Positions 1 to 56,197 of a stretch of 64,000 nucleotides of DNA are shown piece by piece; position 1 is the stretch's first letter, and every line of letters begins with the position of its first letter. The notes beneath the pieces are model-generated. The model saw only the letters and a list, made by a program, of their open reading frames with translations. It ran no database searches and was not told the DNA's origin. Position numbers and translations under genes: made by a program. The DNA comes from Sipunculus nudus (Eukaryota; Annelida; Sipuncula; Golfingiida; Sipunculidae): positions 12,608,979 through 12,672,978 of the forward strand of contig CM049321.1 in assembly GCA_026874595.1 (NCBI GenBank), given 5' to 3'.

Positions 1-1
1 A

Positions 2-340
2 CAAGAATGTCTCCATAGGTTAAGCATCCGCGCAAATTCTTTACAAGAGAGTCATCTTCAGCCCGACCGCAATACTAGACTTACCAACGCTGCCGGTGAT
101 GCCAATTATCAATTTTATCTGAGGTTGAACGAACACCTGCGTGACTGCGAAGTCATCCGCAACAGGGAAGTTACATCCGCGGAACGATGGTTCCCGAAAT
201 GGATGTTATTTATTTTATTCATTGCTCTGTGCCTTACAGTGGTTTTACAATCAAGAAGGCCAATAATAATTTGGAGCGTACCTGAATATTTGCCCGTATG
301 TAAAGTTGAAAATGATCGCAATAGTTTTGCAGAAAAGTGA
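2..340 (+). CDS. TRIM-like (type A) protein, C-terminal part; 5' end outside window
   Basis: The frame is open from base 2 to a TGA at 338-340, so this is the end of a gene entering from the left. The first residues (QECLHRL) align with QECLHKL in the coiled coil of the intact gene at 38163-39173. After an Asn-rich stretch and a charged segment comes a hydrophobic helix (WMLFILFIALCLTVVL), a probable membrane anchor, then a short basic and polar tail of about 35 residues. The order coiled coil, membrane helix, tail is that of TRIM13/TRIM59-type ligases, which known members place at the endoplasmic reticulum. RING and B-boxes would lie left of the window. The tail is longer than in the intact paralogue and differs in sequence, so the two are diverged copies. 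The open frame plus the paralogue match makes a real gene end likely; expression is unknown. Confidence 0.7.
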   Translation, partial: QECLHRLSIRANSLQESHLQPDRNTRLTNAAGDANYQFYLRLNEHLRDCEVIRNREVTSAERWFPKWMLFILFIALCLTVVLQSRRPIIIWSVPEYLPVCKVENDRNSFAEK

Positions 341-904
341 AAAAAACATCGGAGAGCAATGAAATGTGACTGCGAAATACAAAAGACAGTGCTACGTCAA
401 GTATCAATAAGACACAGCGTCTGTAGACCCACACTCTCCTCTTACGTATGTTTAAACTGTAAATTCTATTTTCTAGACTGTTGGTTGTAAGCATCTTCAA
501 GGAAGTTCATGCTTTATTATTTTTAGTTCCAGGTCGTGGCATACATATGCCATGAACACGCCACTCATTAGTAATTGGTATTGTCCCATATAGGCCTACT
601 GGAGTCGTGACACAAGTCATTCCAGAAAATACACTGCATCGGCCATCCATCCTATTGTATTAACCTGTGTCACATTTTCGATCGATCCTGAATCGATCCT
701 AAGATCCTAGGTACTCCCATACAGACAACCAAACACGGACAAATACGACTATTCGATGTAAAAGGGGTAGTTATTCTTCCTAAAAAAAAAGCAGATAATT
801 ATTTTTCGACTTGTTTACCAATCATTCTGGAACATTTCAAACAATGTGAACAGTGCTGAATATCCTTACACATATACCTTCGTAAATGAACCAGGAAATT
901 CTCA
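341..904. other. Gene-free stretch downstream of the left-edge TRIM gene
   Basis: This is the 3' flank of the partial TRIM-like gene. It is AT-rich with short A runs (about 781-790). I see no supported coding region; the short open frames on either strand have no recognisable motif. A clear AATAAA close to the stop is not seen. Confidence 0.5.
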
Positions 905-2790
905 ATGTCCACACACTTACTTGTGACAGGTTCACCCTGTTGTGATAAACCTCATGTATGATCAAATATCTATGATGAAAAATACCTGTAATATTGTATA
1001 TAGAATGATAAAAATATTGCTTCTGATAACCCTGTGTCACCTCAATATGTTTTTCCCCTGTGTAACACTGAATTACAGCTGATACTAACAACAATGAAAG
1101 CAGATCGGTTAAGTACAGTCGACACGGGCACAAAACATGTCTTACCTATTATGGCGTAACAGATATATACCTGTGCAGAACATATGTGGCCGTGTACCTT
1201 TGCTTTAAATTGCTAGTAAATCCCAGTGACAATGACAAAATTACCTACTGTCAGACGGAACATCCTGTTCAATTTTATTAACACTATCATACTCGATTTT
1301 GTGAAGTAACTATCATGTGTCAACAATAGTCATCTTGTGCTGGTATATCCCGTAAATTCCAAACCCGCGTTCAGTCTCTGATACGTTTTATTTTAACGAT
1401 TTATTTTGCTGGATACGCATTCACATGCCACATCCGCGCATATGAGATTTATCAGTATTTATTTAGTCAAAATTGATTTTACCTACACGCCGGAGTCGCA
1501 CATTGTGCATATGGAATCTTAACTGTTTCAAGACAAAACAGCTTATAAATTAAAAAGGTTCGGAACGAGACTTTGGAAAGAGTTCCTGCAGGCTTTATCA
1601 CATACATACATACATATATATATAAATATATATATATATATTAGAACATAAGAGCTAAGACTAAAGAATTAAGAACTTAAGAACATCCCAATCGTCCCAA
1701 TCACCTACAAGATAATGGAATTTTGATTTGAATAAAGATTCTTCATAAAAATGACTATTTTTCTTCTACAAAATTACTTAATGTATTAATTTGCGATATC
1801 ATATTCAATTACAAAATCCACATGACATCAACTATAGCCTGCTGTCATATCATAAACAACTCCATTGAACCTAAACATTAACAACATCTTAAACAACCAT
1901 TCTGTAGCGAAACGAATGGCGCACAAAACAAAGCAAACATACAGTAAAACATTTAAATAATGGTTATTGGTCCAAGAATTGAGGTGCAAGATCTAAAAAA
2001 GTATTAAGGCATTCTCGCCCTATTGTATTCTGTATAACTCGACATTTAAACGACAGATGGTAAAAGTAGTACATCTAATTTGCTATATGCAATTCCACTT
2101 TATCAGCTCCTTAAAACCTTTAAATTTACGGTAGCTTATGAATTCTTTTCTCTAATTATTCATTCTTCTTCTCTTTTCAATAGTGTGGAGAGTCCGGCTC
2201 ACATTAAGTTCAAGGTCACTGATAACATACAATCTCAATTTGGTATTAACTCAATGATGGTGTCACCCGAGCACTTTTGGTAGGCCTAAAGACAATAAAG
2301 CGAGTTACAGCTTGTGAAGTTGAAGGCTAGCAGCTGAGCACTTTATTTGTGCTAGTTATCATATTTGTGTATACCTATCCTTTTATTAACTATTTTATTT
2401 TTGTTAAATGACTACTTGCTTGATAAATTTATGAATTCTGCTCTTGGTCCTTTGATTAAAGAGTCTAGTGACTGCAGCGAGTGGAAAGACTGTAGCCGAT
2501 TACGCTAGATATTGCCTGCTCGAAACTTTATGAAATGATTTTGATTGAATGTATTGACCCCTTTATGGTAACGTTTGATTGTCAATTTAGCTTTAATAAA
2601 GTCCACTATAATTATATGTGTATTTATACCCTTAAAAGCGTCATTCAGTACTATATATAGCACAAATGTAAAGACTACCTTGCGCTCTTGATCCCTATCT
2701 AGACGGTCATAAAACATATAATTCCACAATAGCAGTTCTAGGATTTAACTCTATGTAGAAAATTATACTGACCTTATGTAAACATGATAT
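905..2790 (+). repeat. Segmental duplication, copy 1 (TRIM 3' flank)
   Basis: Non-coding DNA that aligns in the same order with 19645-21210 and in part with 22085-22570. Matching landmarks include the stretch around 1320-1600 (compare 20040-20290), the block at 2180-2365 (compare 20885-21065), and the block with GTCATAAAACATATAATTCC at 2706-2725 (compare 21138-21157). Copy 1 carries about 270 extra bases (roughly 2370-2640) that copy 2 lacks. Both copies follow a type A TRIM sequence, so the gene and its downstream flank were duplicated together. Confidence 0.8.
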
Positions 2791-7060: not shown

Positions 7061-7676
7061 GTCACATCTTTCCCCTCATCGGTGTTGAGGATTTAATTGG
7101 ATTGGATTGTAAGATAAATCAATAAAAATATATCGATATACCGTGAGAAAAAAAATTGTATGTACCTTCATCCGGTGTGTGGTTCATTAATAGGACAAAG
7201 ACCATTACCGTTTGTTTGCCCACTCGGACCACCACTGGCGCTACGGAACATCTGATTGTTTTTGAAACGCACACAACAACGCACTATCGAACGGCTTTAT
7301 ATTTTTTCGCTGTCATCCAAGCTCAAAAAGCGGAGTAGGGAAAATGGCAAGTTTTGATTTATAATACTCCTTATAACTGTTTGCCATGCGTTTGAGGTTA
7401 ATTTGTCATGCACTTTAATGTACTCTGGAATTGAAATGGGGGTATCGTGCATTTATCCAGTGAAAGAAACTCACCAGAAACCTTCGCAGAGTATCACAGA
7501 CCCGCGAGGCTGTGAGAGTTTGCCATGTGTTCACACCAAATCCCCGCCGAATATCTGCTAGTCTAGTGTGTGCGATCTAGGGCCATGGTCCGCTTAGTCA
7601 AATTGTTCTTGTGAGGCTGCTAATCGCAAGCGATCACGCTGCGTTGTGGACGAATGTGGACAATAGTGCACTGCTA
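7061..7676. other. Gene-free stretch
   Basis: Unique-looking AT-rich sequence leading up to the foldback element. A small open frame at 7156-7338 has no recognisable motif and is not supported as a gene. Confidence 0.45.
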
Positions 7677-8044
7677 TGAAGCCCCTAAAGTGACATGCGT
7701 GTTATGTTTTTTCTTGGAAAATATCGCGTTCCCTCGCGATCTTTTCGCGTTCCCTAGGGATAATATCGTGTTACCTCACGATATTTATATCTCACCATAT
7801 CGTTGAGGTAGAGACCAATATTATCGCGAGGGAACGCAAAAAAATCGCGAGGGAATGCGATATTATCGCGAGGGAACGCGAAAAGATCGCGAGAAGATCG
7901 CGAGGGAACGCGATATTATCGCGAGGGAACGCGAAAAGATCGCGAGGGAACGCGAAATTATTGCGAGGGAACGCGAAATTATCGCGAGGGAACGCGATAT
8001 TTACCCAGAAAAAAAATATCACGTATGTGACTTTAGGGGCTCCA
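7677..8044. mobile_element. Foldback/MITE-like element with CGCG-rich internal repeats
   Basis: A 368-bp element with terminal inverted repeats of about 60 bp. The left end starts TGAAGCCCCTAAAGTGACAT and the reverse complement of the right end starts TGGAGCCCCTAAAGTCACAT; the match continues inward through ATATCGCGTTCCCTCGCGAT. The dinucleotide TA stands directly outside both ends (7675-7676 and 8045-8046), as expected of a TA target-site duplication in Tc1/mariner-type insertions. The interior is an array of a 21-22-bp unit with core TCGCGAGGGAACGCGA, itself bounded by the palindromic arms TCGCG/CGCGA. About nine units lie in one orientation (7822-8000) and two to three in the other (7724-7785), so the element can fold back. 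No transposase is encoded, so it is non-autonomous. Confidence 0.85.
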
Positions 8045-8964
8045 TACACTACTGTGTTGCATTGTGTTGCCTGTCGAGTGAATGTATCATGGCCCCTGGT
8101 ATCCTTGGCAACCCTGTGACCCCAGTCGTAGAGTAAGGAGAGGCATTCGACTCCTGGAAGATGTGATAATATCGTAATTCACAGGAAGAATTTTCTAAAT
8201 GCAGCGAAAAAAGTAAGAATCACAATATATAAAGTGTCGTTTAACAGATTTATAAAGCATTGATTGATAAGATTTTTTAAATGATTTTCAAATTGAGTTG
8301 ATATTTCTGTAATCCTCACGCATGAACCAGGTTTTTATTCCTTTCTTTCAGATCACACAGCAAAATTCCTGATGCACATTAATCAGTAAGTAGAATTGTA
8401 TATATTGACGCTATTCTAATGCAGTAACGAGCGAGGCTATCGGCACGACCCCGTGCCGATAAGCAGTATAATTTGCAAGCAGCCCTATATATAGCCAAAA
8501 TTTACCTCTGGTAAATACCGCATCAGTACAACTTGAGTTTTAGTTGCCAAATATACAATGTCACACAATTACAACCACAATCAGTGTATAATACTAGAAA
8601 AAGTGAGGTTTCGGATGTGCTTTAGCTGCTGTACATATTTCTTATAACTTGGATGATATACCTGGTTTCTGTTCATCCATATAATTTTTCTATATTTGTA
8701 TCAACTTTTCATCAAGTTTTATTGTTTTATAATTAAAGTAACAATATTATGACCAATTCAAATATTGTCGTGCTGATAAGAGTACTTATTCACGCGACCG
8801 ATAAATGCTACTAGCAGAAACTGTGTATGCCCCTAAGCCGGTTTCACAGTGTTGAATCATCAGTCTTAGGGATTTAAATGGATTTTTTAGAGCGATTCAG
8901 AACTTTCTTGTGAATGGTCTTGCTTTAAAGTCGAACACATCACTCTGTAAATTATATTCTGCAG
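8045..8964. other. Gene-free stretch
   Basis: AT-rich intergenic or intronic sequence right of the foldback element. No repeat or coding region could be supported. Confidence 0.4.
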
Positions 8965-14884: not shown

Positions 14885-16069
14885 ATGGCAGCAAGTAAGG
14901 AGCACAGTATACAGACTGCCCAATCTGTTTAATAATTTGATTCACAGCCAGCCACGCTTTCTTTGTTGCCACCATACTTCCCCTGAAGCTTGCCTTAAGG
15001 TTTTAATAAACAATAGTAGGCGAGTAGATTTGTCCATCATGTAGGCATAAAACTCATATCCCCGACGGAGATGTTAAAAAACTGAAATTAAATTTCTTTT
15101 TAGAAGGCTTTCAAGAAGAACTCCTTAAGGTAGAGGGTCGCTGTGACGTATGTTTGTGTAAAGGAGTAAATGTCACTGCATCTTGCCTCTGTTTAGACTG
15201 CAATGAATATTTCTGCGAAGCTTGTGTTTTACTTCACGTAGACATATTTAATGCTCATACAACCGAGCCAGTTACCAGTAAACAGATACAATGAGATGAT
15301 CATAAACAGGATGCCAAGTTCTTATGTCGCACATGCTCCAAAGATGTATGCGCATTCTGTGTCTTCGACCTGTCGTCTTTACACCGTGGCCACAGCGTGT
15401 CGCCTAAGTCGCAAGAATTCAGTCATTTAACATCAAATTATATAAACCCTGGCAGGAGTATGGACGCCCTTAAACAAAAAATGCAGCAATGTAACAACAA
15501 AATTCAGCAGAACCCTAGGGACGAAGCCCTTGGTACACAGATTCTTACGGAAACCATAAATGAATCTGTTAATAAATCCAGAAACTACATGGACAGACGA
15601 TCAAATAAAAATAAAGAAGAAATCATAAAAATGCAAGAATGCAACTTGAAACTAACAGAATCTTTAGAAAAAGGTTCCATGGAGTGCAACCGTAGTATGA
15701 GCCATTGTATTAATGTTCTTGTTGGAGGTTTTGGTGAGTGTTTCTGACAACTGTCATATAGCCTCCCTGACGAAAAAAGGCATGAAGATCACACATATTG
15801 TAATGCCGGACGGGAGCAAAATTTACCTGACGCCCAAGGACGCAGGAACGTCTGACAATAAAAGAAAATTTCTCTTCTTGCTACTTTTTATAATCGTTAT
15901 TATTATACTCCTCCACATATTAGTTGCACGTTCCTATGAGACTATGTCTAAATCAGTCAACCAATATTTATCATTCAGATCAAAGAATTTCATAACATGG
16001 GGCCACCAAAGGCCTGGTATATACCGTTTTATCCAGGCCAACGTATTCTCACGCAGATCTCATATGTAA
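14885..16069 (+). pseudogene. TRIM-like type A pseudogene (RING, B-boxes, coiled coil, membrane tail)
   Basis: This aligns along its whole length with the intact type A gene at 38163-39173. The ATG at 14885 is kept, but a one-base loss near 14904 throws the RING out of frame. The next RING piece (HSQPRFLCCHHTSPEAC) is readable in another frame, has lost a zinc-ligand Cys, and is followed by a second shift and small deletion near 15035. From 15049 to 15747 one frame carries B-box 1, B-box 2 and the coiled coil, interrupted by TGA at 15292-15294 exactly where the first Cys of B-box 2 (C139 in the intact copy) should be. A further shift near 15740 leads to a frame with a strong membrane helix (FLFLLLFIIVIIILLHILV) ending at 16069. 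With four lesions it is a pseudogene. The last part (15713-16069) is the best preserved and may have diverged from the intact tail. Confidence 0.85.
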
Positions 16070-18440: not shown

Positions 18441-18841
18441 GCGAATAAGAATGCTACTGCAGCAGGTTTTAGGGGCTATTTTAATGTGTCTCTCCTCTCA
18501 CGGGGCCCTAAGCCAGACTATCCCATTGGGTTCCCCATTTTTTAGTCCATACACGTTAAGTACTCGATATCTATGATATCAAACTGTAGCTGATCAGGAT
18601 GACAACTTGATTCCGAAAATTCATTGGGAAATCCACCAGCTTTAATTATTTGCTCATGTTAAGACAACCTGTTAAACTTTTTCGACTGAATAGAATGCTT
18701 ATTGGCACTATTCCTTATCCATTACCAAATTGTCATGAATGTGTAACAAGAAAAATTAATATATATCAATATGATACTTATATACTCTGTGAAATTTATT
18801 TTTATGTTTACGGATTTAATCAGGTATCCGTTGTATAAAAT

Positions 18842-19480
18842 AAAGAACACAGTATACTAGACTGCCCGATCTGTTTTGATAAGATAGTTCACAGACAGCT
18901 ACGGCTTCTTAATTTTCAACACGTGTAGATATAAAACCCACATCCCTGGTTGAAATGTTAAAAAAACTCACATTAAACTTTACCCTACAAGACGTTCAAG
19001 AAGAGCTCCATAAGACCAGGAATTGTAGTGACGTATGCCTCTGTAAGAGATTCAATTTTACTGTATCTACTCTCTCCTCAGAATGTAATCTGCATTTCAG
19101 TTATGGCTGTCTTTTGCCATATATGGATATTTCATGTTCATACTACCGAAACCAACTTAGGGAAAGGAGTAAACTGTTCCGATGATAGAAAAGAAATCAA
19201 GTACCTTTTGTAGCATATGCTGCAGAAATGTTTGATCTTTATGTGTCACGTTTGCCGTCATAGCACCATGACCAACAAATGACGCTGTTATCTTCAGCAT
19301 TTAGCTCAATTAATTCCCGTTTTAACCAGTTTTGTAGTGACATAGCCATTCTTAAAGAAAATACAGAGAAAATTTGCAGTACTGAATGTCCTAACACACG
19401 TCTTTGTAACAGAATCAGGTTATTCTCATTGTTTATAATATTTACCTTTACTTGTGATGGTTGGATGTCTTGTTAATAAA
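18842..19480 (+). pseudogene. TRIM-like type A pseudogene, heavily decayed
   Basis: The stretch from 18842 reads KEHSILDCPICFDKIVH, almost identical to the start of the intact RING at 38163, but the ATG is missing. The middle of the RING is deleted, joining its start to the CACGTGTAGAT segment and creating a stop. From about 18955 a frame resembling the linker and B-box 1 follows (LTLNFTLQDVQEELHK, then a CNSDVCLCKR-like zinc pair). Beyond 19140 the match to B-box 2 continues only as frame-broken DNA to about 19240. The last part (to 19480) has weak coiled-coil resemblance. This is the most degraded type A copy, and it is followed by duplication copy 2. Confidence 0.8.
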
Positions 19481-19644: not shown

Positions 19645-21210
19645 CCAACGTTATTTTTTTATGTGTGACTGGATCACCAGGTTGTGGTTAACCTTTCTAT
19701 GTTGAAATATTTATGTAGGGCCTGTTATGACATTTTTCCCTGTAAAATTTATTTATGATTACTGCGTGTCACCTCAACATATTTTCCTTTCTCCTTTTTC
19801 TTTTATTATCAGCTGGTATCAACAACAATCACAGCAGATCGGCTACAGTCGAGACGGGCACAAAATATGTTTGACTAAGATGATATGACGAAACGAAATA
19901 TAACCTGTGCAGACGATATGTGACCGTGCATCTTGCTTAATATCACCAGAAACACCGAATGACAATGATAGAATTACCTACCGTCAGACGGAACTTCCTG
20001 TTTAATTAGATAAAAACTATCATACTCGAGTTTTGTGTAGTAACCACCATGCGTCAACAACAGTCATCTATATATCCCATATATTCCTAACCCACGTATC
20101 GTGTCTGGTACGTTTTATGTTAATGATTTGTTTTGCTGTATACGCATTTGCATGCCACATCTGCGTGTATGAGATCTCCCAGTATTTATTCAGTCAAAAT
20201 CAATTTTACCTACACACCTTAGCCACTTTCTGTGCATATGGAATCTTAGCTTAACTGTTTCAAAACAAAAGAACTTATCAATTAAAAAAGTTTTGAACCA
20301 GGCTATGTAACGAGTTGGGCAGGCTGTCTACGCACACATACACACACATACACACACGCATATATATATATAGTTTAGAGCTATGAAAAAGGACACTTAA
20401 GAACATCCATATCGCATACAAGATGACGTAATTTGGATTTAAATAAGGACTTCATTAAAATGGCCATTTTCCCCATAGAAACTTATTTAATGTATTAATT
20501 TAATATCAACTACAGCCTGCTTTCATATCACACAGCTTTACCGAACCTAAACATTTACAACACCTTAAAAGACTATTCCGTAGCGAAACAAATGGCGCAC
20601 AAACTAGAGAAAACAGAAAGTAAGACATTTAAATAATGATGATCAGTCCAAGAACTGAGGTTCAAGAACTAAAAAATTATTAAGGCATTCTTCACCTCTT
20701 GTGTAAACGTATTACTCGTCATTTAACGGCAGATGGTAAAAGCTGTTCATCTGATTTGCTATTTCCGATTACACTTTACCAGCTCCCGATCATGATATAT
20801 CATATGACATTTTAAAACTTTAAATATACATTGTCTTGTGAATACCTTTCCCTTCTTATACTTTCTTCTTCTCTTTCAATAGTGTGAAAAGTCCGGTTCA
20901 TATAAAGAGCAGGGTAACTGAAAACATACATTCTCATTTACACCTCAGTGATGGTATAACCCGAGGTCTCGGTAGGCATAAAGGCGCTAAAGCGAGTTAA
21001 AGCTTATGAAGTTGGTGGCCTTGCTACTGAGCACTTTGTTCATGCTAGTGAACATATTTGTGTATATAAGTGTCATTCAGTACAACAGATATTACATATG
21101 TTAAGAATACCTTGCGCTCTTGATCCTTATCAAGAAAGTCATAAAACATATAATTCCACAAAAGCAGTTCTAGGGATAGACTCTGTGTAGACACTTATGC
21201 GGACCTTGTG
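19645..21210 (+). repeat. Segmental duplication, copy 2 (TRIM 3' flank)
   Basis: Collinear with 905-2790. It lacks the segment equivalent to 2370-2640; the junction lies near GTGTATATAAGTGTCATTCAG at 21059-21079, and GTGTAT stands near both ends of the extra block in copy 1. As in copy 1, it begins a few hundred bases after a type A TRIM coding remnant. It includes a CA/TA microsatellite near 20330-20372. Confidence 0.8.
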
Positions 21211-21289
21211 CTTTATATTTTCAAAAGTGCATTTATCTGAATCACCCCAGGTTTTATTGCAATCTATATACTACTCATACACCGTATTT

Positions 21290-22304: not shown

Positions 22305-22365
<61 letters not shown>

Positions 22366-23116: not shown

Positions 23117-24148
23117 CTAGTGTGCCATATAAAATTTCCTAGTGGTGTGGAAACATATTATATACTCCATGGGCACAGGCGTATAAAAATACACAACTAC
23201 GGACCCAACGAGGAAAAAGCAAAGGAGTTCTATGGACTTCAGCTCTTCTTTTAAATAATTTAATTTCTGTTCGTAAGCATGTAAATTGTGATTAATACTT
23301 CCTATATCACTCGGTATATTGCGGTTGCTTGCCTCTAATTGCATACACTTGAAGTTACACGTGTCTACAGCTTTCTTAATTCCATTCATGGAACAAGTCA
23401 CTTTTTGGTGGTTTTACTGCATTGTGTCCACGATAGACTTTGTCAGGTCTCGTTTGAGCTCCTGGTTATTTCTGCCTAATTTTTCTTCAGCTGTGTCCCT
23501 TAAATCTTTGATGTATTTCTGCATGTCTGCCTGATACCCCTGGGTATTTTCTTTAATGAGTTCTAAATTGTTTCGCACATGGAAAAAATCCACCTTGAAA
23601 GAATCGAATTCTTTTGATAGAGGCGACACCTGGTGTCTCTTGTGATTGGACGACACGCCAAGGGCACAGAGCGGGCAAACACATTTGGAGCACGTACGGC
23701 AAAAGTACTTTACTGCTTGTCCATGATCTGTGCATTTTATGTCTTTACAAATAACTGAAACACACGTATGTGAAGTAAACGTGTCAAGATGAAGTAAGAC
23801 ACATTCATCACAGAGTTTTAGATCACAATCCAAACAGCGTTATGACGCAAGAGCCACCTTTCTCAGACACCTGCAAACACCGCATACGTCTTTCATGTTC
23901 CACATTTCGTCAACTATTTCTTGTATCATAAAATTCACAGGAAGCTCACCGATATCGCCGTAAGGGATGGTAGTCTCACGTCTGCATGTCGGACAGATCA
24001 CCCTTCCTCGTACGTTATTGGCTGCTAATTCACTGAGGCAAGATTCGCAAAATGAGTGGTGGCAACTGAGAAACCGTGGTTGACGATGGACCATATCCTC
24101 AAAACAAATCGCACACTCCAATAACCCATGTGTATTTCTCTGCGCCAT
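23117..24148 (-). pseudogene. TRIM-like type A copy, full length with two in-frame stop codons
   Basis: From the ATG at 24148 to the TAA at 23119-23117 one frame of 344 codons covers the whole type A protein without any frameshift. RING ligands C12, C15, C29, H31, C34, C37, C52 and C55 fall at the same residue numbers as in the intact gene at 38163. B-box 1 and B-box 2 follow, then a coiled coil and a C-terminal membrane helix (LCFFLVGSVVVYFY). Two TAA codons interrupt it: codon 103 (23842-23840), where the paralogue has Phe103, and codon 245 (23416-23414) in the coiled coil. All zinc ligands remain. An acceptor (GATCTTACAG) ends 8 bases before the ATG, as in the paralogues. It is most simply a young pseudogene. 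A RING-only product of 102 residues, stop readthrough or an assembly error are alternatives. Confidence 0.8.
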
Positions 24149-35134: not shown

Positions 35135-35350
35135 AAGCATAACATATAGAGACACATGTCACTTTAGCTAACCTTGAACACATACACAGCCACATGTCCC
35201 TACAACGTATCCTGAACATATAAACAGTCACATTTCACTTGAGCTTTTGTTGAACACATACACAGCCACAAGTCACATCAGCTTAACTTCAAGACATACG
35301 CAGTCACACTTCACTACAGCTTATGTTAAAACGCGTACACAGTGTTAAAG
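35135..35350. repeat. Tandem minisatellite, about 50-bp unit, four to five copies
   Basis: Repeated blocks of the form ACACAGCCACATGTC, then CTACA or CTTTAGC, then a short AC-rich or TTGAACACAT part; ACATACACAGCCACA occurs near 35185 and again near 35260. The same minisatellite family recurs at 52055-52225. Confidence 0.75.
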
Positions 35351-35929: not shown

Positions 35930-36965
35930 TCAATGAGCACGGTGAGAGATCTGAGCGTGTCAAGGTCACCAGATTTCAAACTCTTCCAAGTTTTTGGTAG
36001 GAACAATCAGTGTTTCAATTTTGGGAGGAAAATATCAACCCTTCAAAAGTTATCGCATTTACAAGACAATAACTAAAATTTGGCTGATGTGACCTTAAAA
36101 GTATTGGTCAAGGTCACCAGCCTTCAAACTTCTTCGAGAACTTTGTAGGAACAATCAGTGTACCAAATTTGAGGACAAAATATGAAATATTTCAAAAGTT
36201 ATGGGCTTCACAAGAATTTTCCATTTCGGCAGATTTGACCATGAAAATAAAGTTTCAAACTCCTCCGAGATTTCAGTATGAACCATTAGTGTGTCAAATT
36301 TTGGCGGAAAATATGCACCCCTTTAAAAGTTATCGTGTTCAAAATATAATAAAAAATGTTTACGTTTTGGCGATTTGAACTTGAAGATGAAGGTCAAGAT
36401 CACCGGTTTCAGACTCCTTCGATAACGTTGTAGGGACAAAAGGTGTACCCAGTATGAGGACAAAATGTGTAATACTTCAAAAGTTATGGGCTTCACAAAA
36501 TAATTACATTTCGGCAAATTTGGCATTGAAATTGCAGGTCAAAGTCATCGGATTTCGAACTCGTCCGATATATTGGTTGAAACCATTAGTATGTCAAACT
36601 TCGGAGGAAAATATGCAGCCCTTCAAAATTTTTTTTTTGTTTACAAGGAAACCCCAAAATAATCACATTTCGGCAGATATGACCTTGAAGATGAAGGTCA
36701 AGCTCACCTTGTTTCAAACTCGTCCGAGATTTTAGTAGGAACAATCAGTGTTTTTAAATTTCGGAGGAAAATATGCAGCCCTTCAAAAGTTGTCGCGTTT
36801 ACAAGATATCCTACCAACATTTAACATTTCCGCAGTCTTGACCTCGACGATGAAGGTCAAGTACACCGGGTTTCAAACTCGTCCAAGATTTTGGTGGGAA
36901 CCATCAGTGTTTAAAATGTCGGAGGAAAATAGGCAGCCCTTCAAAAGTTATCGAGTTTACAAGAT
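35930..36965. repeat. Tandem repeat, about 145-bp unit, seven copies
   Basis: Each unit contains a GAAGGTCAAGnTCACC-like block, then TTTCAAACTCnTCCGAGATT, then AGGAACAATCAGTGT, then CGGAGGAAAATATGCAGCCC, then CTTCAAAAGTTATCG and TTTACAAGA. Units start near 36012, 36152, 36283, 36432, 36580, 36740 and 36901. Spacing is 130-160 bases. Open frames across it are repeat artefacts with broken continuity. Confidence 0.85.
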
Positions 36966-37062
36966 ATCCTTCAGACGACGAAGAATGACGACCAAAGACG
37001 ACGACAGCACTGAAAACAACATGTCTCCTCTGGAGGGGGGAGGGGGAGAGACATAATAATGT
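36966..37062. repeat. GAC-rich tail with hairpin end of the 145-bp repeat array
   Basis: Directly after the array comes a CGACGA-rich segment, then ATGTCTCCTCTGGAGG and GGAGAGACAT, which form a G/C-rich hairpin. It looks like the fixed 3' end of a dispersed composite repeat rather than unique sequence. Confidence 0.6.
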
Positions 37063-38142
37063 CTTACCTGGCACGTAATTCGTATGAGACAAATAATCCA
37101 AAATATTGCAGGATAAATCACAATGACTGCGATATATTCAACGATTATCAACAGCGATACCAGTTGATGACATCAGTCTATGCGACGTCATACGTCATCG
37201 ACCTTTGTGACGTCATTATTATGTTGTAAGCAGCTATCGCTACCATGGGCATGGAAGACCTGTGTAGGAGCATTTTGGAGGCTTACTATGATATTATATT
37301 AAAAGGGAGGAACATTTTGGCTTTGGTGAATAGATCAACTGAATAATTACCGCCAACAAGCTTACTAAAATTGCAACTCCTGGGTTGAGTATTCTTGTTC
37401 TGGTGGCAGAACTCTCTTAAGAGGGAAAGTGTTACGGGATGCACATATAAGGATTTAGGAAAAGGGGGGCCCGACCCAGGAGGACTAATGAAAACCCTAA
37501 TAAATAGGTCCCCAGGCCCGCAAAAGGGTGTTGGGGGGGGGGGGGTCCAGGCAGAAACCCTTTGAACAGGTTGCAGTTGAGGAAAAAGGGTGGATCCGGA
37601 CCCGATAGAATATTTTAGCATTGTTAATACAGGAAATGTTTATGCCACGGTGCGTTCAGGATTCAGATAAACCCTGCACCACTAACGTGAAAACATTTAC
37701 GGTTCTCGCATCGGGTCATATCAGCAATGTTTCACTCGAGTCACAATAAATAAAATATGAATAACAGGATAACATATTCATTATTATGTATAATGCTCTC
37801 TTAACATTCGCAAATAAAATAATTTTTTTTCTCAAAACGGGCAGTTTCAACTTCCATTATTTAGTGTTGTAAATGGGAATAGTACCGGCCGTCAATAATC
37901 GGAGTATAACCATGCTCTATCGTCTATCACACAATAATGATATTTTAAAGTATTGCTACAATCTGGTAATTTTATCCAATGTGTATGGTAGAAAAAAAAG
38001 GTTTATGTTATTTGACAGGAAAAAAAACTACAATATGAATAACCTTATTAAATACTCTTTGATCCAACAATTTTTCATCCATGATTTCTTTTTCAAATCT
38101 GTACAGCAATACATAATTATATTGTTTTTTTTCTGCCTACAG
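37063..38142. other. Gene-free stretch, probable 5' intron of the TRIM gene
   Basis: Holds a G/C-rich repeat-like patch (37460-37600, with GGCCCG motifs and a run of 14 G). It ends with a pyrimidine-rich splice acceptor, TTTTTTTTCTGCCTACAG, at 38125-38142. No separate gene is supported. Confidence 0.5.
38125..38142 (+). promoter_or_regulatory. Splice acceptor in the 5' untranslated region
   Basis: A T-run followed by CTGCCTACAG, 20 bases before the ATG. The pseudogene at 14885 has TCTCTCTACAG 19 bases before its ATG and the minus-strand copy has GATCTTACAG 8 bases before its own. The shared position argues that all type A genes have a 5'-UTR intron and a single coding exon. Confidence 0.6.
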
Positions 38143-38162: not shown

Positions 38163-39173
38163 ATGGCAAAGAACAAGGAACACAGTATACTGGACTGTCC
38201 GATCTGTTTTGACAGTATGGTTCACAAAAAGCCACGGTTCCTTTCTTGTCACCATACTTTCTGTGAAGCTTGTATTAAAGGTTTAGTTGACAATGCCAGG
38301 CGTGGAACTGTAATCTGCCCCACGTGTAGATTTAAAACTCATATCCCCGATGGGGATGTTGAAAAGCTGACGCTAAATTTCTTTTTAGAATGTCTCCAAG
38401 AAGAACTAGTTCAGAGAGGGAGTCGCTGTGACGTGTGTGTGTGTAGGGATGTAAACGTCACTGCATCATTCCGCTGCTTAGACTGTAATTTACATTTTTG
38501 TGATGAGTGTCTCTTGCTTCATGTTCACATATTCACTTCCCACACCTCTGTACCCAGCACTGGTAACGGGATTAAATGTATAGATCATCAGCAAGAAGTC
38601 AGGTATTTGTGCCGCACGTGTTCCAAACACGTATGCCCTATGTGTGTCCTAGATATGTCGGCAGTGCACCATCACCACCAGGTGTCGCCTATTATATCTC
38701 AAGAATCCAACCAACATACACCTGACTATGATAACCTATGCGGTATAGTTGATAGTCTTAATGAAAATATCGTACAACTGAGCACCAAACTGCAGCAGGA
38801 GCCTAGAGAACCAACCATTGACACTGACCGTATGTTGCACATAATGAAGGAATATATAAACAAAGCCAGGAAAGAAACAGACAAACAAGCTCATAAAGAT
38901 AAAGAGGAAATTATGAGAAAATTACAAGAGTGTCTTCATAAACTGAACGCCTGCACAAACACTCTGAATGAAGGTTATCGAGAGAGCAACCGCAGTCTTA
39001 ATCATTACAGTAGTGCTATTGAGAGTGGTTTTCAGGGGCGTCGCCGGACGTTGGGCCACCGCCAGCCTATCAGGGAGGTCATATTGGTCCAGAATGTTAT
39101 AATACCAGATGTAGTTATGACATTTCTTTTTCTTATAGTCATATACCTGCTTAAAGCACTCTTTAAGCTGTGA
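38163..39173 (+). CDS. TRIM-like E3 ubiquitin ligase with C-terminal membrane anchor (type A), intact
   Basis: A 336-residue protein in one uninterrupted exon. RING C3HC4 ligands are C12, C15, C29, H31, C34, C37, C52 and C55. B-box 1 spans about residues 89-127 (C89, C92, C105, C108, C113, C116, H120 and H127 visible). B-box 2 spans 139-172 (C139, H142, C150, C153, C158, C161, H169 and H172). A coiled coil covers about 195-290, and a C-terminal hydrophobic helix (VVMTFLFLIVIYLLKALFKL) ends at the last residue. This order, without SPRY or NHL, is that of TRIM13/TRIM59, membrane-anchored ubiquitin ligases. The inferred role is ubiquitination at a membrane; substrates are unknown. The start is fixed by the ATG 20 bases after a splice acceptor, shared with its paralogues. 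ATTAAA at 39225 is a possible poly(A) signal. This is the only intact type A copy here. Confidence 0.85.
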   Translation: MAKNKEHSILDCPICFDSMVHKKPRFLSCHHTFCEACIKGLVDNARRGTVICPTCRFKTHIPDGDVEKLTLNFFLECLQEELVQRGSRCDVCVCRDVNVTASFRCLDCNLHFCDECLLLHVHIFTSHTSVPSTGNGIKCIDHQQEVRYLCRTCSKHVCPMCVLDMSAVHHHHQVSPIISQESNQHTPDYDNLCGIVDSLNENIVQLSTKLQQEPREPTIDTDRMLHIMKEYINKARKETDKQAHKDKEEIMRKLQECLHKLNACTNTLNEGYRESNRSLNHYSSAIESGFQGRRRTLGHRQPIREVILVQNVIIPDVVMTFLFLIVIYLLKALFKL

Positions 39174-41428: not shown

Positions 41429-42448
41429 ATGGAGAGTTATCAGTCCTCGTCGGCCAAAGTTCGCACGCATTGTCAAGTTTGCTTGAATGACGAATCCCTG
41501 AAACTGCTGGACTGTGAGCATTCATGCTGTATTGCATGTCTGTCTGGGCTTGCAGAAGCGCACGAAGCTACAGCTCTAAAAGTATCGTGTTTGAAATGCA
41601 AAAGTGAGACAGTCATCAAATCAGGCAACCTGTCAGACCTTCCGGATAATATTCAGCTGTATGAGGAAACGGCCACAGTTCATAAACAAAATCGACACTG
41701 TAACTGTTTCTACTGCATGAAGCTAGAGAAAGAAGCAATGGCGGTGGGTCAGTGCATAACCTGCCACAGGTTCATGTGCGAGGGGTGTGCAGAAAAACAC
41801 AAGAATTTACTTTCCCGACATCAAGTCGTACTTATGATGGATGACAAACAGCAGGAGTTTTGCCACAAACACAATGAACCTGTTGTATACGTTTGTCGGG
41901 TTTGTTCCCCCTTACGGCTGCTTTGTGATATATGTATAATGGTTGATGGCCAATGTCACTCGGAGAAGGAATTGGTAGAATATACTGATTTCATGGAAGA
42001 GGAAACAAAGCTGAAGTCAAAACTTGACCAGTTAAGCAACCTCGACGTGGTTCTAAAAGAATTAGAAGTCAGACGGCAGATGGATGTAACAAGAATCCTA
42101 GATGTGGTGAAGAGAGAAGTAGCATCACCGATTGAAGATTCTTTAAACATAAATTCAATTAAGCTTGCAACAGAAACAGTCAAGCAGACCTCTGCCATGG
42201 CACATGAATTACTTAATTGTGACGCAAGGCAGCTGGATGGTTTGCAAAAGGCGAACAGACAAATGCAAAAGGCGTTTAACGAGTTTAACAGGGAGAAAAA
42301 GAAGGCAAAGGCAATTGATCCTACCCTGGATTTGGAGTCAGAATTGAAGGAACCACTCTCCAGCTTAAAACAAGTCCTGAGTAGCATATTGGCCGCGGGC
42401 CCCACGTTTGTGGTAACTAATTTACCCAAGAAGGCACATCACAAGTAA
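41429..42448 (+). CDS. TRIM-like RING/B-box/coiled-coil protein (type B, short form), intact
   Basis: A 339-residue protein from the ATG at 41429; in-frame codons further upstream lack an ATG. RING ligands are C15, C18, C29, H31, C34, C37, C54 and C57. B-box 1 spans about 93-131 (C93, C96, C109, C112, C117, C120, H124, H131) and B-box 2 about 145-177 (C145, H148, C156, C159, C166, C169). A long coiled coil (about 185-300) follows, and the protein stops shortly after with a basic end. It resembles the N-terminal two thirds of the type B copy at 54359-56197 but has no beta-propeller, so it may ubiquitinate or act as an oligomer partner without the usual substrate domain. That its 3' end and flank recur at 52231-52830 suggests the short form is a lineage of its own. 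AATAAA motifs near 42682-42697 could end the transcript. Confidence 0.82.
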   Translation: MESYQSSSAKVRTHCQVCLNDESLKLLDCEHSCCIACLSGLAEAHEATALKVSCLKCKSETVIKSGNLSDLPDNIQLYEETATVHKQNRHCNCFYCMKLEKEAMAVGQCITCHRFMCEGCAEKHKNLLSRHQVVLMMDDKQQEFCHKHNEPVVYVCRVCSPLRLLCDICIMVDGQCHSEKELVEYTDFMEEETKLKSKLDQLSNLDVVLKELEVRRQMDVTRILDVVKREVASPIEDSLNINSIKLATETVKQTSAMAHELLNCDARQLDGLQKANRQMQKAFNEFNREKKKAKAIDPTLDLESELKEPLSSLKQVLSSILAAGPTFVVTNLPKKAHHK

Positions 42449-46436: not shown

Positions 46437-46680
46437 TTGGACAATCGAAGATTAAAATGCTTGGAACTCTTCGCTTGCGTCCCGGGTTTGATCATCGGAG
46501 TTGCCATGAGAGTGGGTTGTGCATGGTGGCCCGTCCAAGGTCGGTGGTTTGTCTGGGTCCTCAGGCTTCCTTCACCTCTACAGACTGTATGACACCATCA
46601 TACAAGCTATGGAGAGTGCGCGATTAGTTATTATAACTATTTGTACAATCCATGTATAATAAATGAACTTTATAACCAAA
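46437..46680 (+). repeat. SINE-like repeat, copy 1
   Basis: Starts near TGGACAATCGAAG and contains GGTTTGATCATCGGAG, a possible remnant of a tRNA-type B box. It then shows a central GTGGCCCGTCCAAGGTCGG (46529-46547) with GTCTGGGTCCTCAGGCTTCC, and ends near GTACAATCCATGTATAATAA. From memory, similar central domains occur in molluscan SINEs. It matches copy 2 block by block. Confidence 0.65.
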
Positions 46681-46781
46681 AATAGGTGGCACCACCAGTC
46701 TTATAAATAACAAAACGATCCCGGCTGATTTCAGGCTGATACGCCGAACCAATCTTGAACTGTATGCACAGATGCAGCAAT

Positions 46782-47013
46782 CTGGACAATCGAGGGGTAA
46801 AACGCTCGGCTCTCTCGAACCAAGTTTGATCCCCAGAGTTTCCATGAGAGAGGCTTGTGGTGGCCCGTCCAAGGTCGGTGGTTTTCTCCGAGTCCTCCGG
46901 TTTCCTTTAACGCTAAAGACTATCGAACGCCACCTTCCAAGCATTGGAGAGTGCCTCGTATTATTTTTTATAACGTTGTACAATCCATGTAAAATAAATA
47001 AAGTTTGTAGATA
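46782..47013 (+). repeat. SINE-like repeat, copy 2
   Basis: Same block order as copy 1: TGGACAATCGAGG, a CAAGTTTGATCCCC B-box-like motif, GTGGCCCGTCCAAGGTCGG (46860-46878), TCTCCGAGTCCTCCGGTTTCC, and GTACAATCCATGTAAAATAA with AATAAA at the end. The two copies are direct neighbours separated by about 100 bases. Confidence 0.7.
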
Positions 47014-47526: not shown

Positions 47527-48734
47527 TCTAAAACTGGTACACTTGGATGATGTAGATGTGGTTCTGAAAGAACAAGAAGTGAAGCTGCAAACAGGGATAA
47601 GTGGAATCTTCGATGAGGTGACAAGAGAAGTCTTTTCTGTGATTGAAGATTTTTTCAACATAAATTCAATTAAGCGTGCAGGAGAAGCTGTTAAACGGGC
47701 CATCTACGATGCTCAGAAACTGCTGAATAGTGATAACAGGATCCTGGAAGGCATTCGTGAAGCAAATGAGCAAATTACAAAGGCGTTTACAGACTTCTCT
47801 GAGGAGAAGATGAAGGCCAAAATTATATGTTCTGATCTTGAATCACATTTTAAGGATCATGGGATACTCTCCACGTTTTAAGCAGGGTCTATATGATGTG
47901 CTGGCTACCAGGCCGAGGCTTCTCACAAGTAAACCAATTATGGGCATGATACGAAGGCTCAGAATGAGCAATAAGGGGCGAGTGATGTATGTATGTAAAG
48001 GAAGCACAGTCATAACTGAATTATGTCCAGATGGCAAGGCACGTCATTTGCAGACAAAAACCAGTTCATATGCAGCTCGAGACTTTGCTTTTGACACACA
48101 CGGTAATTATGTTTACTTTATCTACCAAGCATCCTCATCCTGGCATATTTACAAACTAGACCTGAGTTAAGATTTTTAAACACTTCGTTGTGTAAAGCTG
48201 AAGCGACCAACTACCCGGGAAGCGCAAGTATGTTCTAAAGTTGACCTCTGTGTAGCTAATGGGACATTTATCGTTATACTTCTGTCAAATGGAAAATTAT
48301 TAAAGTGCGATATAAATGCTACAATATACTCTGCCAGAGTGACAGTACACAATATTCCCTATCAAGATGACAACGTCCAACATACCAGTATCACCAGAGA
48401 TACTCAGCCGGGAATCATTGCTACCTATGCAAACCACAAGATTGTACTCTACCATGATGGAGAGGGAAATGTATTGAAAACGGTGTGCAAGGGTGGATCA
48501 CCAATCGGCCAACCAAGGGTTACAACCGTTAGTGCTTCGGGAAACATCCTTGTCGCAGATTCAAAAGCCGGGAACATTATTGAACTGACCACTCAAGGCG
48601 AGGTTCTGCAGAATTTACTGATACGGGAGGATGGCTTGGAATTCCCAGTGAACGTCGTCTACAGTCATCCATACTTGTGGGAAGTGGATGAAACTATAGA
48701 TGGCAAATGTTATCTGAAATGTTTCACTCTGTAA
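47527..48734 (+). pseudogene. TRIM-like type B pseudogene, 5'-truncated, with beta-propeller remnant
   Basis: Homology to the type B copy at 54359-56197 starts in the coiled coil (LDDVDVVLKEQEVKLQTGI) with no RING or B-box. A frameshift near 47870 moves the reading from frame 47543-47881 to frame 47838-48734. In that frame the propeller continues with two in-frame TAA codons at 48168-48170 and 48177-48179. NHL-like strands such as GNILVADSKAGNIIEL follow, and the frame ends at 48734. Compared with the other propeller copy the last blade is shorter and differs. Truncation, a shift and two stops make this a pseudogene. Confidence 0.8.
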
Positions 48735-51124: not shown

Positions 51125-51840
51125 TCATTTTAAAGATCTAGATTGCTTGTCTATTGAACCTGACCAAGATGTTAATTTACCAATAATAACGACTTTATGT
51201 AAATTGTTTAGGACAGGGCTTGTCAAAAACACTTGCCCACTTCTCCAAGGGGTTAGAAATATCACCGAACAACTTCCACAGTGTCTGAAAATTGCAAGCT
51301 AGGCCGACGATGCATTAGACCATGCCATAGAGACAGTACCGGTACAAGGGAATATCACATACAAGACAATTCATATAAAAAATAGGAGCAGGGGATGTTT
51401 TATATCACGATATGTATCATGAGGGAAATCGGGTTCCCGACAGAAGGTACTATTTAGCATTTAAATGGTGTTCAATTGCTCTTTATTGCCTGGCTATTGA
51501 TTTTGACTAAGATATAAATTTTACCAATAACAAAAAAATAATTATATTCATTTAATGTATATTGATTAGGGCAGCGAACGACAATAATACTTGTTAACTT
51601 ACTCAAGGGAATGAAAATAGTGAGAAGAACATGCCCCGGTGTCTGAAAATTTCCTGCTGGGCCTACGGTATATCAGACCATGCCCTTGAAACAGTCCTAG
51701 GGAATATAGAATATCACATACAGTATGAATTATACAGAAATATAAAAGCAGGGAATCTTTCATAGAACGATATGTATCATAAGGGATATCAAGTTTTCGA
51801 CATCAGGATACATTTAGCATTAAACTGGTGTTCCACCCTA
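51125..51840. repeat. Tandem duplication, about 358-bp unit, two copies
   Basis: Copy 1 is about 51125-51482 and copy 2 about 51483-51840. Landmarks TCAGACCATGCC-like (51316 and 51674), AACGATATGTATCAT-like (51406 and 51768) and TTTAGCATTAAA-like (51456 and 51812) repeat at a distance of 355-362 bases. The copies have diverged, so the event is old. No coding content. Confidence 0.7.
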
Positions 51841-51935: not shown

Positions 51936-51938
<3 letters not shown>

Positions 51939-51977: not shown

Positions 51978-51978
<1 letters not shown>

Positions 51979-52054
51979 GTCATTCTCACGTATCACATGA
52001 AATATTGATAGACTTCTTCAATGGTGGTTTTCTGTCATCATCTTCTGTCTTTGT

Positions 52055-52225
52055 AAAACATAAAGTCACATGTCACTAAGCCTATCCTGATGACATGATC
52101 ACTTACACAGCCACATATCACTACAACCTATCCTGATCACATGATCACATACACAGCCATATGTCTCTAAAACCTACACTGATCACATGGTCACATAAAC
52201 AGCAACATGTCACCACAGCTTATTC
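52055..52225. repeat. Tandem minisatellite, about 56-bp unit, three to four copies
   Basis: Units share GATCACATGATCACATACAC, then AGCCACATATCACTACAACC, then TATCCTGATCAC or variants. The ACACAGCCACATGTC and CTATCCTGA parts are the same as in the array at 35135-35350. The array abuts the TRIM 3' fragment at 52231, which suggests a breakpoint within the repeat. Confidence 0.75.
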
Positions 52226-52230
52226 CGATC

Positions 52231-52365
52231 AAAGGCAATTGACAGCACCCTAGATTTAGAGTCGGTTCTGAATCAACCATGCTCATGGTTAAAACAGGTC
52301 CTGAGTGGCAGATTGTGGACTCCACGTTTGCGATCACCGGTATGCAGAAGGCCAATCATAAGTGA
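52231..52365 (+). pseudogene. TRIM-like type B short-form, 3' fragment
   Basis: About 135 bases matching the last codons of the intact gene at 41429-42448: GCAATTGACAGCACCCTAGA against GCAATTGATCCTACCCTGGA, then the AAACAGGTCCTGAGTGGC part, ending with AATCATAAGTGA. The upstream coding part is missing and replaced by the minisatellite. Flanking homology continues to about 52830. Confidence 0.8.
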
Positions 52366-53969: not shown

Positions 53970-54020
<51 letters not shown>

Positions 54021-54320
54021 TGTGTTTGCTGCCTGACAAAAAATGTTCCTGTCTATTAGAATAGTTAACATATTATACACGCAGCTACTAAATGACCAGA
54101 AAGTTGTTGAGCAAATATATAAGTATCAAACTCGGTGGAGATCATCGATAAGTTAAGTACAAGGTTTCCTTAAAAATCAATAGCCTCTGATCATGTGGCC
54201 CTTAATGTATCTGCGCAAGCAAAGATACGTTTCTGTGGGCGTAAACTTCCTGTCACGAGTAAAATCGTGTATCTTGGAAATAAGGTTTGCCAGCAAAAGC
54301 TACATGAAGGGACGGAGTTT
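52366..54320. other. Duplicated 3' flank (to about 52830), then a gene-free stretch
   Basis: The first part pairs with 42449-42860. After that comes AT-rich DNA with a TA/TG microsatellite at 53971-54026. No further gene. Confidence 0.5.
53971..54026. repeat. (TA)n(TG)n microsatellite
   Basis: About ten TA units followed by about seventeen TG units with one interruption. Confidence 0.95.
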
Positions 54321-54358
54321 GTTTATGATGTCAATCGTACCAGATTTAAATTGCTGAA

Positions 54359-56197
54359 TTGGCTTTTCGAAAGAGAATTTCTAGGAGACAATCTTCCTCA
54401 GCCGAATATAAAAAGAAAGAATGCTCAGTTTGCTTGTGTGATGAAACACCTAAGCTGCTGGACTGTGAGCATTCATGCTGTATAACATGTCTCTCTGGAT
54501 TAGCCGTGGAACATAGAGATTCAGAACTGAAAAATAACATGACCAACGTGCAAACGTGATACAGTTGTTAAATCGGGAGGACTGTCAGATCTTCCAGATA
54601 ATATTTTGCTTCATGAGGAAAAGGTCGAAGTTGATAACCACATTCGACACCAACACTGTTTCTACTGTCAGAAGCTGGGCGAAGGATCAACTGCTGTCAG
54701 TCAGTGCATTAACTGTCATAGGTTCCTGTTCGAGGTTTATGCTGAGAAACTCAAAACATTATTCTCGATACATAAAGTCGCACTCATGGAGCAAGAAACG
54801 AATGAGTTTTGCAAAAAACACAACGAACCTTTTGTTTATGTTTGCAAGAATTGTTCTCCTCTACGACTCTTATGTGACGTCTGTATGATGCCTGATGGTT
54901 CATGTCACACAGATAATAACTTGGTAGATTACAGTGCATTCACAGAAGAAGAAACAAAACAGAAGTCAACACTAGACCAGTTGTTCAATGTCGATGAGGT
55001 TTTGACGGAATTAGACGAAAAACGACGGACTGGGCTCGGCAGGATCGTCGATGTTGTAACAAGACAGGTAAATTCTCACATAGAAGAAATTTTAAACATA
55101 AAACACATAAAAGTTGCAGCAGAAACTGTTAAAACGACCAGCTGTGATGCAAAAAAAATCTTTTAAACTGTGATACCAGGCAGCTGAAAGACATTCAGAA
55201 AGCAAATGAGCAAGTTGAAATAGCCGTAAAGGAATTTACCATAGAGAAACAAAGGTCAAAGATCATTCGTCTTGACAAGGAATTGCAGTTAATGATGAAT
55301 CATGTTGTATCCAGGTTTACACAGGACCTAGGTGACGTGCTGGTTTCCAGACCTCAGCTTCTCACAAGGAAACCGATTGTGAGCATGGTAAGAAGGCTCG
55401 TGGCCACCAAAGCCGGGCGAGTGATGTACGTGTATAAAGGAAGCTCAGTCATAACCGAGTTAAGGTCAGATGGAAAAACATACCACCTTCAGACAAAACA
55501 TATTGCAACTGGTGGTCAAGAAATTGCAATTGACGCTCATAGAAAGAACGTGTACTCTTCCTGTAACAATCCCCCTTTCCAGCTTTATCAATATAGATTG
55601 CCATCTTTTACAAGAACAAAAGCTTTAAAGGCTCCAGGACATGCTTTTAAACCCATACATAAATCCTCTATAAGCCCTGTAGCTGACATCTTGATTACTG
55701 ACGAAAACACTGTTGTTATAGTCCGGTCAAATGGTATCATCTCAACGCTGGATTTAAAGTCCAACACGGTTATTGACCATGAAATCCCTCATCAGGATGC
55801 TGAGGTTCAGACAACTAGTAAAATGAGATACACTGGAAAAGGATTTATTGCTACCTACCCAAGCCACAAGACCGTACTCTACCAAGACGAACATGGGAAA
55901 GTGTTAGAGACTATATGTAAGGGCGGATCGCCAGTCATTCAGTCTTATGCTACAGCCATCAGCGCAACGGGAACCATCCTTGTCGCAGACGCCGGAGCTG
56001 GTAAAATTGTTGAACTGACCATGCAGGGTGAGTTTGTGCGGGACGTGTTGACCAGAGAAGATGGTCTACAGTTCACAATCAAACATGCTGTGCAGATTTA
56101 CCCACGCATAATTAGCCGTTTCAAACTTCTACCACTAGGCGGCGTGCATGTTGGCGAGGATCGCTTCAGTGTTAGAATGAGTATTTATCTTAATTAA
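54359..56197 (+). pseudogene. TRIM-like type B (RING, B-box, coiled coil, beta-propeller), two frameshifts
   Basis: The full type B order can be read across three frames. The RING start (CSVCLCDETPKLLDCEHSCC) lies in frame 54359-54559, with no ATG available: a TAA stands at 54347 in that frame. Near 54548 one extra base shifts the reading, so the last RING Cys pair and the B-boxes follow in the second frame (to 55166). B-box 1 has lost three ligands of the paralogue (C117 to F, C120 to Y, H124 to L). A second shift beside an eight-A run (55151-55158) returns to the first frame, which stays open to 56197. This last part encodes the coiled-coil end and a beta-propeller with NHL-like strands (GTILVADAGAGKIVELTMQG). 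The end at 56197 differs from the other propeller copy. It is probably a pseudogene, though the propeller frame itself is intact over more than 300 codons. Confidence 0.8.

What the first reader, a model, noticed from the sequence alone, without database searches (positions are those of the whole stretch)
1..56197. Two-lineage TRIM cluster caught in birth and decay
Nine TRIM-like coding sequences or remnants lie in about 56 kb. Two are intact, one is cut by the window edge, and six are broken in different ways: nonsense only, frameshift only, 5' truncation, 3' fragment and internal deletion. Two architectures sit side by side: membrane-anchored (type A) and coiled-coil with or without propeller (type B). 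TRIM expansions in bivalves are known, but this order, with type A on the left and type B on the right and different decay stages, gives a time series of gene turnover.
Basis: partly seen in the sequence, partly recalled or inferred. Interest (0 to 1): 0.7.

Follow-up and report, generated by a model that had tools for sequence, protein, structure and literature searches.

The report
Old TRIM gene cluster with pseudogenes
A stretch of animal DNA (host not identified) holds nine genes or remnants of the TRIM ubiquitin-ligase kind; the copies are ancient and six are broken, several apparently long after they were copied, which looks like ordinary gene-family turnover rather than a fresh burst of new genes.

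Summary
Nine TRIM-like loci are present: five type A (RING, B-boxes, membrane anchor) and four type B (with or without a propeller). Two are open, one is cut by the window edge, six are broken.

Corrections: A4 is on the minus strand. B4 is not 'frameshift only': its start codon is lost and a 2.6-kb insert splits its propeller; the rest lies at 58694-58789, beyond the given range. B3 carries the tail of B1, so the propeller-less form is shared by two copies.

'Birth and decay time series' is only half supported. Of 11 pairs scored, dS is 1.0-3.0 in ten and undefined in one, so no birth is caught. Lesion counts suggest deaths 0.006-0.074 substitutions per site ago; only A3 and B4 have intervals that do not overlap, and there is no left-right trend. 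Broken and open copies do not differ significantly in omega. A splice-acceptor-like site before the ATG in 3 of 5 loci examined, and no poly(A) tail at 7 of 7, favour DNA-level duplication.

Host, tree with other species, expression and haplotypes were not tested. Ordinary; low interest.

The parts
2..340 (+). A1: last 112 codons and stop of a type A gene, cut by the window edge; membrane anchor
   Evidence: hydropathy maximum 2.31 over 19 residues
14885..16069 (+). A2: type A pseudogene; frameshifts at 14912, 14929, 15027, 15769; stops at 15292, 15745; membrane anchor after the last shift
18831..19362 (+). A3: type A remnant; start codon and splice acceptor lost, internal gap, 5 frameshifts, 2 stops, 3' half missing
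23117..24148 (-). A4: type A frame of 343 codons with two in-frame TAA (23842, 23416), no frameshift seen; membrane anchor kept
38125..38142 (+). splice-acceptor-like site of A5, ending 20 nt before the ATG (13 of 14 pyrimidines); A2 has one 19 nt before (12 of 14), A4 one 8 nt before (10 of 14)
38163..39173 (+). A5: open type A gene, 336 aa: RING, B-boxes, C-terminal anchor
41429..42448 (+). B1: open type B gene without propeller, 339 aa
47531..48734 (+). B2: 5'-truncated type B with propeller; frameshift 47873, stops 48168 and 48177
52226..52365 (+). B3: 3' end of a B1-like short form with one frameshift (52307), beside a 46-bp minisatellite
54374..56074 (+). B4: type B with propeller; start codon lost, frameshifts 54548 and 55158; interrupted after 56074
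56075..58696 (.). AT-rich insert of about 2.6 kb that splits B4; CAGTTC at 56069-56074 and 58697-58702 as possible target-site duplication
   Evidence: 26% GC over 56081-58693
58694..58792 (+). end of B4 beyond the insert: 32 codons as aligned, and stop

Best explanation
This is an old, DNA-duplicated cluster of TRIM-type E3 ubiquitin ligase genes in an animal genome, in two anciently separated classes: A (RING, B-boxes, presumed coiled coil, C-terminal membrane anchor) and B (RING and B-boxes by sequence, presumed coiled coil, with an NHL-like propeller, or in B1 and B3 without it). Shown: the homologies, the lesions, the near-saturated or saturated silent divergence between the copies scored, and an acceptor-like site before three type A start codons. 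Inferred: copies arose by segmental or tandem duplication together with a 5' intron, lived under constraint for most of their history, and then broke by stops, small indels, deletions and insertion, late compared with their duplication. Inferred function: A5 as a membrane-anchored ligase and B1 as a soluble one, possibly in innate immunity, by analogy with oyster TRIMs.
For: A5 reaches the Pfam cut-offs of four RING models and of B-box; its best solved matches are TRIM2 and TRIM3. B1 matches the TRIM28 tripartite region (E = 9.3e-6, residues 3-230) and A5. The propeller profile matches NHL structures of Thin (3.5e-4) and TRIM2 (0.0023). NG86 dS is 1.0-3.0 in 10 of 11 pairs, undefined in one. 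Branch omega is 0.15-0.18 for A5 and B1, and omega = 1 is rejected on the branches of A3, A4, B2 and B4 too (2dlnL 4.4 to 34.7), so those copies spent most of their history under constraint. Lesion-based time since death is 0.006-0.074 per site. Acceptor-like sites with 10 or more of 14 pyrimidines precede 3 of 5 start sites examined against 153 of 2762 ATGs of the window. A content after the stop lies within the control range at 7 of 7 loci examined.
Against: B1 reaches no Pfam cut-off, and no RING or B-box model is listed for it at E up to 1; a three-row B profile finds only TRIM2, at E = 0.092. NHL scores 13.1 bits against a cut-off of 20 on one B2 piece. Separate omegas for open and broken copies are not significantly better than one, so loss of function rests on the lesions. 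The acceptor limits (5-25 nt, 10 of 14) were set after the sites had been seen; A3 and B1 do not meet them, and at 8 of 14 (met by B1) 18% of ATGs qualify. B1's hydropathy maximum, 1.63, is not far below A4's 1.93. Immune function is analogy only.
Confidence: 0.8

Rival explanations
1. Assembly or sequencing errors: some broken copies are intact genes with base-calling errors.
For: 3 of 12 frameshifts checked (15769, 18960, 55158) lie beside homopolymers of 6 to 8 bases; frameshifts outnumber stops in A2 and A3.
Against: 9 of the 12 are not at such runs, nor, by eye, is the thirteenth (B3, 52307). Lost start codons, 5' truncation, deletion and a 2.6-kb insert are not base-calling errors. A5 and B1 are clean in the same window.
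Confidence: 0.08
2. Segregating null alleles: A4 (two stops, no frameshift seen) and perhaps B4 are functional on other haplotypes, so the window shows polymorphism rather than fixed decay.
For: Lesion-based time since death is 0.011 (0.001-0.039) for A4 and 0.006 (0.001-0.022) for B4, on the scale of within-species diversity that I recall for bivalves; A4's omega of 0.22-0.26 is near that of the open copies.
Against: No second haplotype was available; A4 needs two independent hits, and B4 a start loss, two frameshifts and a large insert.
Confidence: 0.3
3. The genes were spread by retroposition, and the broken ones are processed pseudogenes.
For: The open copies are single coding exons.
Against: A pyrimidine tract with CAG stands 8-20 nt before the ATG in A5, A2 and A4, as expected of an intron that a processed copy would lack; no A-rich tail beyond the control range at 7 of 7 loci examined.
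Confidence: 0.05
4. A more recent segmental duplication joins A1 and A3: about 1.4 kb of non-coding DNA downstream of both is 82-83% identical where aligned (K about 0.2), which would be a recorded birth.
For: Blocks 1011-2373/19744-21066 and 2633-2778/21065-21210 are collinear and on the same strand as the genes, K = 0.205 and 0.195. The third, partial copy (22113-22528) lies about 0.6 kb beyond the 3' end of A4; flanks of type B genes that were tested have none.
Against: That third copy is in the opposite orientation relative to its gene, and the flanks tested after A2 and A5 have none, so the block may be a dispersed repeat. The coding parts of A1 and A3 do not overlap, so their own divergence cannot be measured.
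Confidence: 0.35

Closest known systems
Clustered, fast-turnover mammalian TRIM genes with pseudogenes (PMC2533329; passages seen)
   Same: Clustered paralogues with premature stops or distal frameshifts in some species; [quoted passage not shown]
   Different: That gene group is headed 'absent in invertebrates' there and is of SPRY type (partly recalled); here C-terminal anchors or propellers, and near-saturated divergence
Oyster TRIM genes responding to disease (PMC9892467; passages seen)
   Same: Many TRIM transcripts in one animal, named TRIM2-, TRIM3-, TRIM5-, TRIM45- or TRIM71-like; 79 in one expression module
   Different: Transcript-based; the passages seen describe no gene cluster or pseudogene series
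Young TRIM genes of primates (PMC3228819; two passages seen)
   Same: Related TRIM genes at few loci, with pseudogenes among them
   Different: Recent primate copies; here the scored copies are near or beyond saturation
TRIM-NHL proteins (TRIM2, TRIM3, TRIM32, TRIM71, Thin)
   Same: B2 and B4 end in a propeller-like region whose profile matches NHL structures of Thin and TRIM2
   Different: Weak match; no NHL repeat reaches Pfam's cut-off; B1 and B3 lack the domain
TRIM proteins with a C-terminal membrane anchor (TRIM13, TRIM59; recalled, from no call)
   Same: A1, A2, A4 and A5 have a hydrophobic segment near the C-terminus
   Different: The RING matches seen are to TRIM2, 3, 56 and 32 structures; orthology untested

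Membership tests
TRIM (RBCC), type A | RING finger | tested here: met
   A5 above the Pfam cut-off of four RING models
TRIM (RBCC), type A | B-box | tested here: met
   A5 26.7 bits and A2 33.3 bits against 24.1; the first B-box is not called above cut-off
TRIM (RBCC), types A and B | Coiled coil after the B-boxes | not tested
TRIM (RBCC), type B | RING and B-boxes | tested here: inconclusive
   No RING or B-box model listed for B1 at E up to 1; TRIM28 tripartite region matched at 9.3e-6; B profile only TRIM2 at 0.092; Cys/His spacing looks complete by eye; A5-B1 E = 2e-12
TRIM-NHL, type B long form | NHL propeller | tested here: inconclusive
   Profile of three pieces matches NHL of Thin 3.5e-4 and TRIM2 0.0023; Pfam NHL 13.1 bits against 20 on a B2 piece
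TRIM with C-terminal membrane anchor, type A | C-terminal transmembrane segment | tested here: met
   19-residue hydropathy maxima near the C-terminus: 2.31 (A1), 3.54 (A2), 1.93 (A4), 2.65 (A5); B1 1.63 and B4 1.26 for comparison; hydropathy only
TRIM | E3 ubiquitin ligase activity | not testable with these tools
   Needs a biochemical assay

The most novel reading that the evidence does not exclude
The locus is a reservoir of null and present alleles: A4, and perhaps other broken copies, are working genes on other haplotypes, so that individuals carry different sets of membrane-anchored and soluble TRIM ligases; and the propeller-less B1/B3 form is a long-kept subfamily that lacks the presumed substrate-binding part and could act as adaptor or competitor of the long form.
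Probability: 0.2. Interest if true: 0.55.

Novelty: new member of a known kind. Interest (0 to 1): 0.25.

Why it matters
If the dating holds, copies survived until their silent sites were near saturation and several then broke late, so loss here is more recent than gain. That is a testable statement about how invertebrate TRIM repertoires turn over, but birth and death of clustered TRIM genes is described in mammals (PMC2533329, passages).

Tried and rejected
Retroposition was considered and disfavoured. B1 as a one-off truncation of a long form was rejected because B3 has the same tail. A tenth copy was sought and not found (with the limits told under the observation). The A1-A3 block as proof of a recent duplication was held back; its odds were raised from 0.3 to 0.35 on rechecking, because the third copy does lie beyond the 3' end of a type A gene, though turned round. 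Separate omegas for open and broken copies did not reach significance. For A2, omega = 1 could not be rejected in three data sets at 2dlnL 0.34, 1.32 and 3.57. Relatives in viral contigs: none for A5 or B1. Rfam at gathering thresholds and tRNA scan: nothing.

Papers: 9 searches; among the titles listed none names a bivalve TRIM cluster with pseudogenes, which is no proof of absence, as most lists were cut. Seven papers were fetched: passages of PMC3228819, PMC9892467 and PMC2533329; outline and abstract of PMC7492417; in PMC13093298, PMC8382680 and PMC4595640 the passages shown for 'TRIM' concerned read or alignment trimming, not TRIM genes.

Limits: one search scored 11 pairs; A1 was left out. 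YN00 failed in 6 of 11. Searches use star trees and drop stop and frameshifted codons. In one search the type A query had B1 joined to its end by accident (one file held both), which affects only the far 3' ends; one search used the right query, but the A2 length is. In one search the 0.8 share of indels that shift the frame is assumed, the indel-to-substitution ratio (42 to 227) comes from one non-coding block, and lost starts, deletions, the insert and B3 were not counted.
Full report
What is there. Translated searches with the two open genes and ten further frames found nine TRIM-like loci. Frame-aware alignment gave their lesions. Type A: A1 (2-340, cut by the edge), A2 (14885-16069), A3 (18831-19362), A4 (24148-23117, minus strand), A5 (38163-39173, open). 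Type B: B1 (41429-42448, open, no propeller), B2 (47531-48734), B3 (52226-52365), B4 (54374-56074 with its end at 58694-58792). Profiles built from each type and run against all six frames found no tenth locus at E < 0.01; the best hits in base-shuffled windows, 5 per profile, had E of 0.089 to 3.1. This scan missed the B4 tail, and part of one row of its B profile was out of frame, so small remnants could be overlooked.

What they encode. A5 passes the Pfam cut-offs of four RING models and of B-box, and its nearest solved relatives by sequence are TRIM2 and TRIM3, then TRIM56 and TRIM32. The four type A C-termini available (A1, A2, A4, A5) have a hydrophobic segment near the end. B1 gets no RING or B-box match from Pfam, but matches the TRIM28 tripartite region at 9.3e-6 and A5 at 2e-12; a B profile gave only TRIM2 at 0.092. 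The region after the presumed coiled coil in B2 and B4 matches NHL propellers of Thin and TRIM2 weakly. B3 shares the last 48 residues of B1 (27 of 48 columns identical, with one frameshift), including the ending before the stop, so the short form is not a one-off truncation. No structure could be predicted.

How they were copied. In A5, A2 and A4 a pyrimidine tract and CAG stand 20, 19 and 8 nt before the ATG. With 10 or more pyrimidines of 14 and 5-25 nt from the ATG, limits set after looking, this is seen at 3 of 5 start sites examined (not at A3, whose site is changed, nor at B1) and at 153 of 2762 ATGs of the window. This fits a 5' UTR intron copied along, so DNA-level duplication. A content after the stop codon is within the control range at 7 of 7 loci examined. 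Non-coding DNA downstream of A1 and A3 is 82-83% identical where aligned (K 0.205 and 0.195). A third, partial copy at 22113-22528 lies beyond the 3' end of A4 but turned round relative to it; the flanks tested after A2 and A5 and beside type B genes have none. The block may mark a segmental duplication or be a dispersed repeat.

How old. Of 11 pairs scored, NG86 dS was 1.0 to 3.0 for ten and undefined for one; where defined, dN/dS was 0.08 to 0.32; YN00 worked for 5 of 11. On star trees omega is 0.15-0.18 for the open copies, 0.22-0.26 for A4, 0.32-0.33 for A3, 0.34 for B2, 0.36 for B4 and 0.40-0.63 for A2; omega = 1 is rejected for each branch but that of A2. A model with separate omegas for open and broken copies is not significantly better (2dlnL 0.84, 1.48, 2.94; reached or exceeded in 12, 9 and 4 of 40 simulations). 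So the coding sequences carry mainly the signature of their working life.

How long dead. Counting stops and frameshifts, with an indel-to-substitution ratio from the non-coding block, gives 0.006 (B4), 0.011 (A4), 0.013 (B2), 0.031 (A2) and 0.074 (A3) substitutions per site. These are far below the distances between copies. The 95% intervals are wide; only those of A3 (0.030-0.152) and B4 (0.001-0.022) do not overlap. There is no gradient along the map, and the omegas give another order. A4 has two stops and no frameshift; if 18% of lesions are expected to be stops, two of two has a chance of about 0.03, a mild oddity noticed after the fact that would fit young or segregating null alleles.

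B4. The propeller breaks after the codons LQF (ending at 56074) and resumes with VQF at 58694. B2 has no break there. CAGTTC stands on both sides of the roughly 2.6-kb, AT-rich insert, a possible target-site duplication; no terminal repeats were recognised by eye.

Artefact. Of 13 frameshifts, 12 were checked, and 3 of these lie beside homopolymers of 6 to 8 bases; the one in B3 does not, by eye. Other lesions are not typical base-calling errors, but no reads were available.

Known or new. [quoted passage not shown] Passages of PMC9892467 describe many TRIM transcripts in oyster expression data. PMC7492417 (abstract seen) describes tandem arrays carried by Helentron-type elements in oyster, a possible source of minisatellites such as that beside B3; this link is conjecture. 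The host was not identified: the genome search was never reached. The cluster is a new member of a known kind.

Noticed in passing
61246-64000 +: Ty3/Gypsy-type retroelement: CCHC zinc knuckle, aspartyl protease and reverse transcriptase (RVT_1 E = 1.6e-36), running off the window, with one in-frame stop near 61720.
   Followed up: partly
56075-58696: AT-rich insert of about 2.6 kb that splits the end of the B4 propeller, with CAGTTC on both sides.
   Followed up: partly
1011-2780, 19744-21212, 22113-22528: Non-coding block in two long copies (K about 0.2) and one partial copy, each beyond the 3' end of a type A locus, the third turned round relative to its gene.
   Followed up: partly
7675-8046: Palindromic element with 112-nt arms and a 21-bp repeat, with open frames on both strands.
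   Followed up: no
35959-36970: Direct repeats with a unit of about 159 bp carrying GACCTTGAAGATGAAGGTCAAG-like motifs; I recall similar repeats from mollusc genomes, untested.
   Followed up: no
52067-52231 and 35142-35342: Related minisatellites (46-bp and 38-bp units); the first ends within 6 bases of the start of the B3 fragment.
   Followed up: partly
46438-47009 and 51142-51833: Pairs of about 240-bp and 350-bp direct repeats upstream of the truncated B2 and of B3.
   Followed up: no
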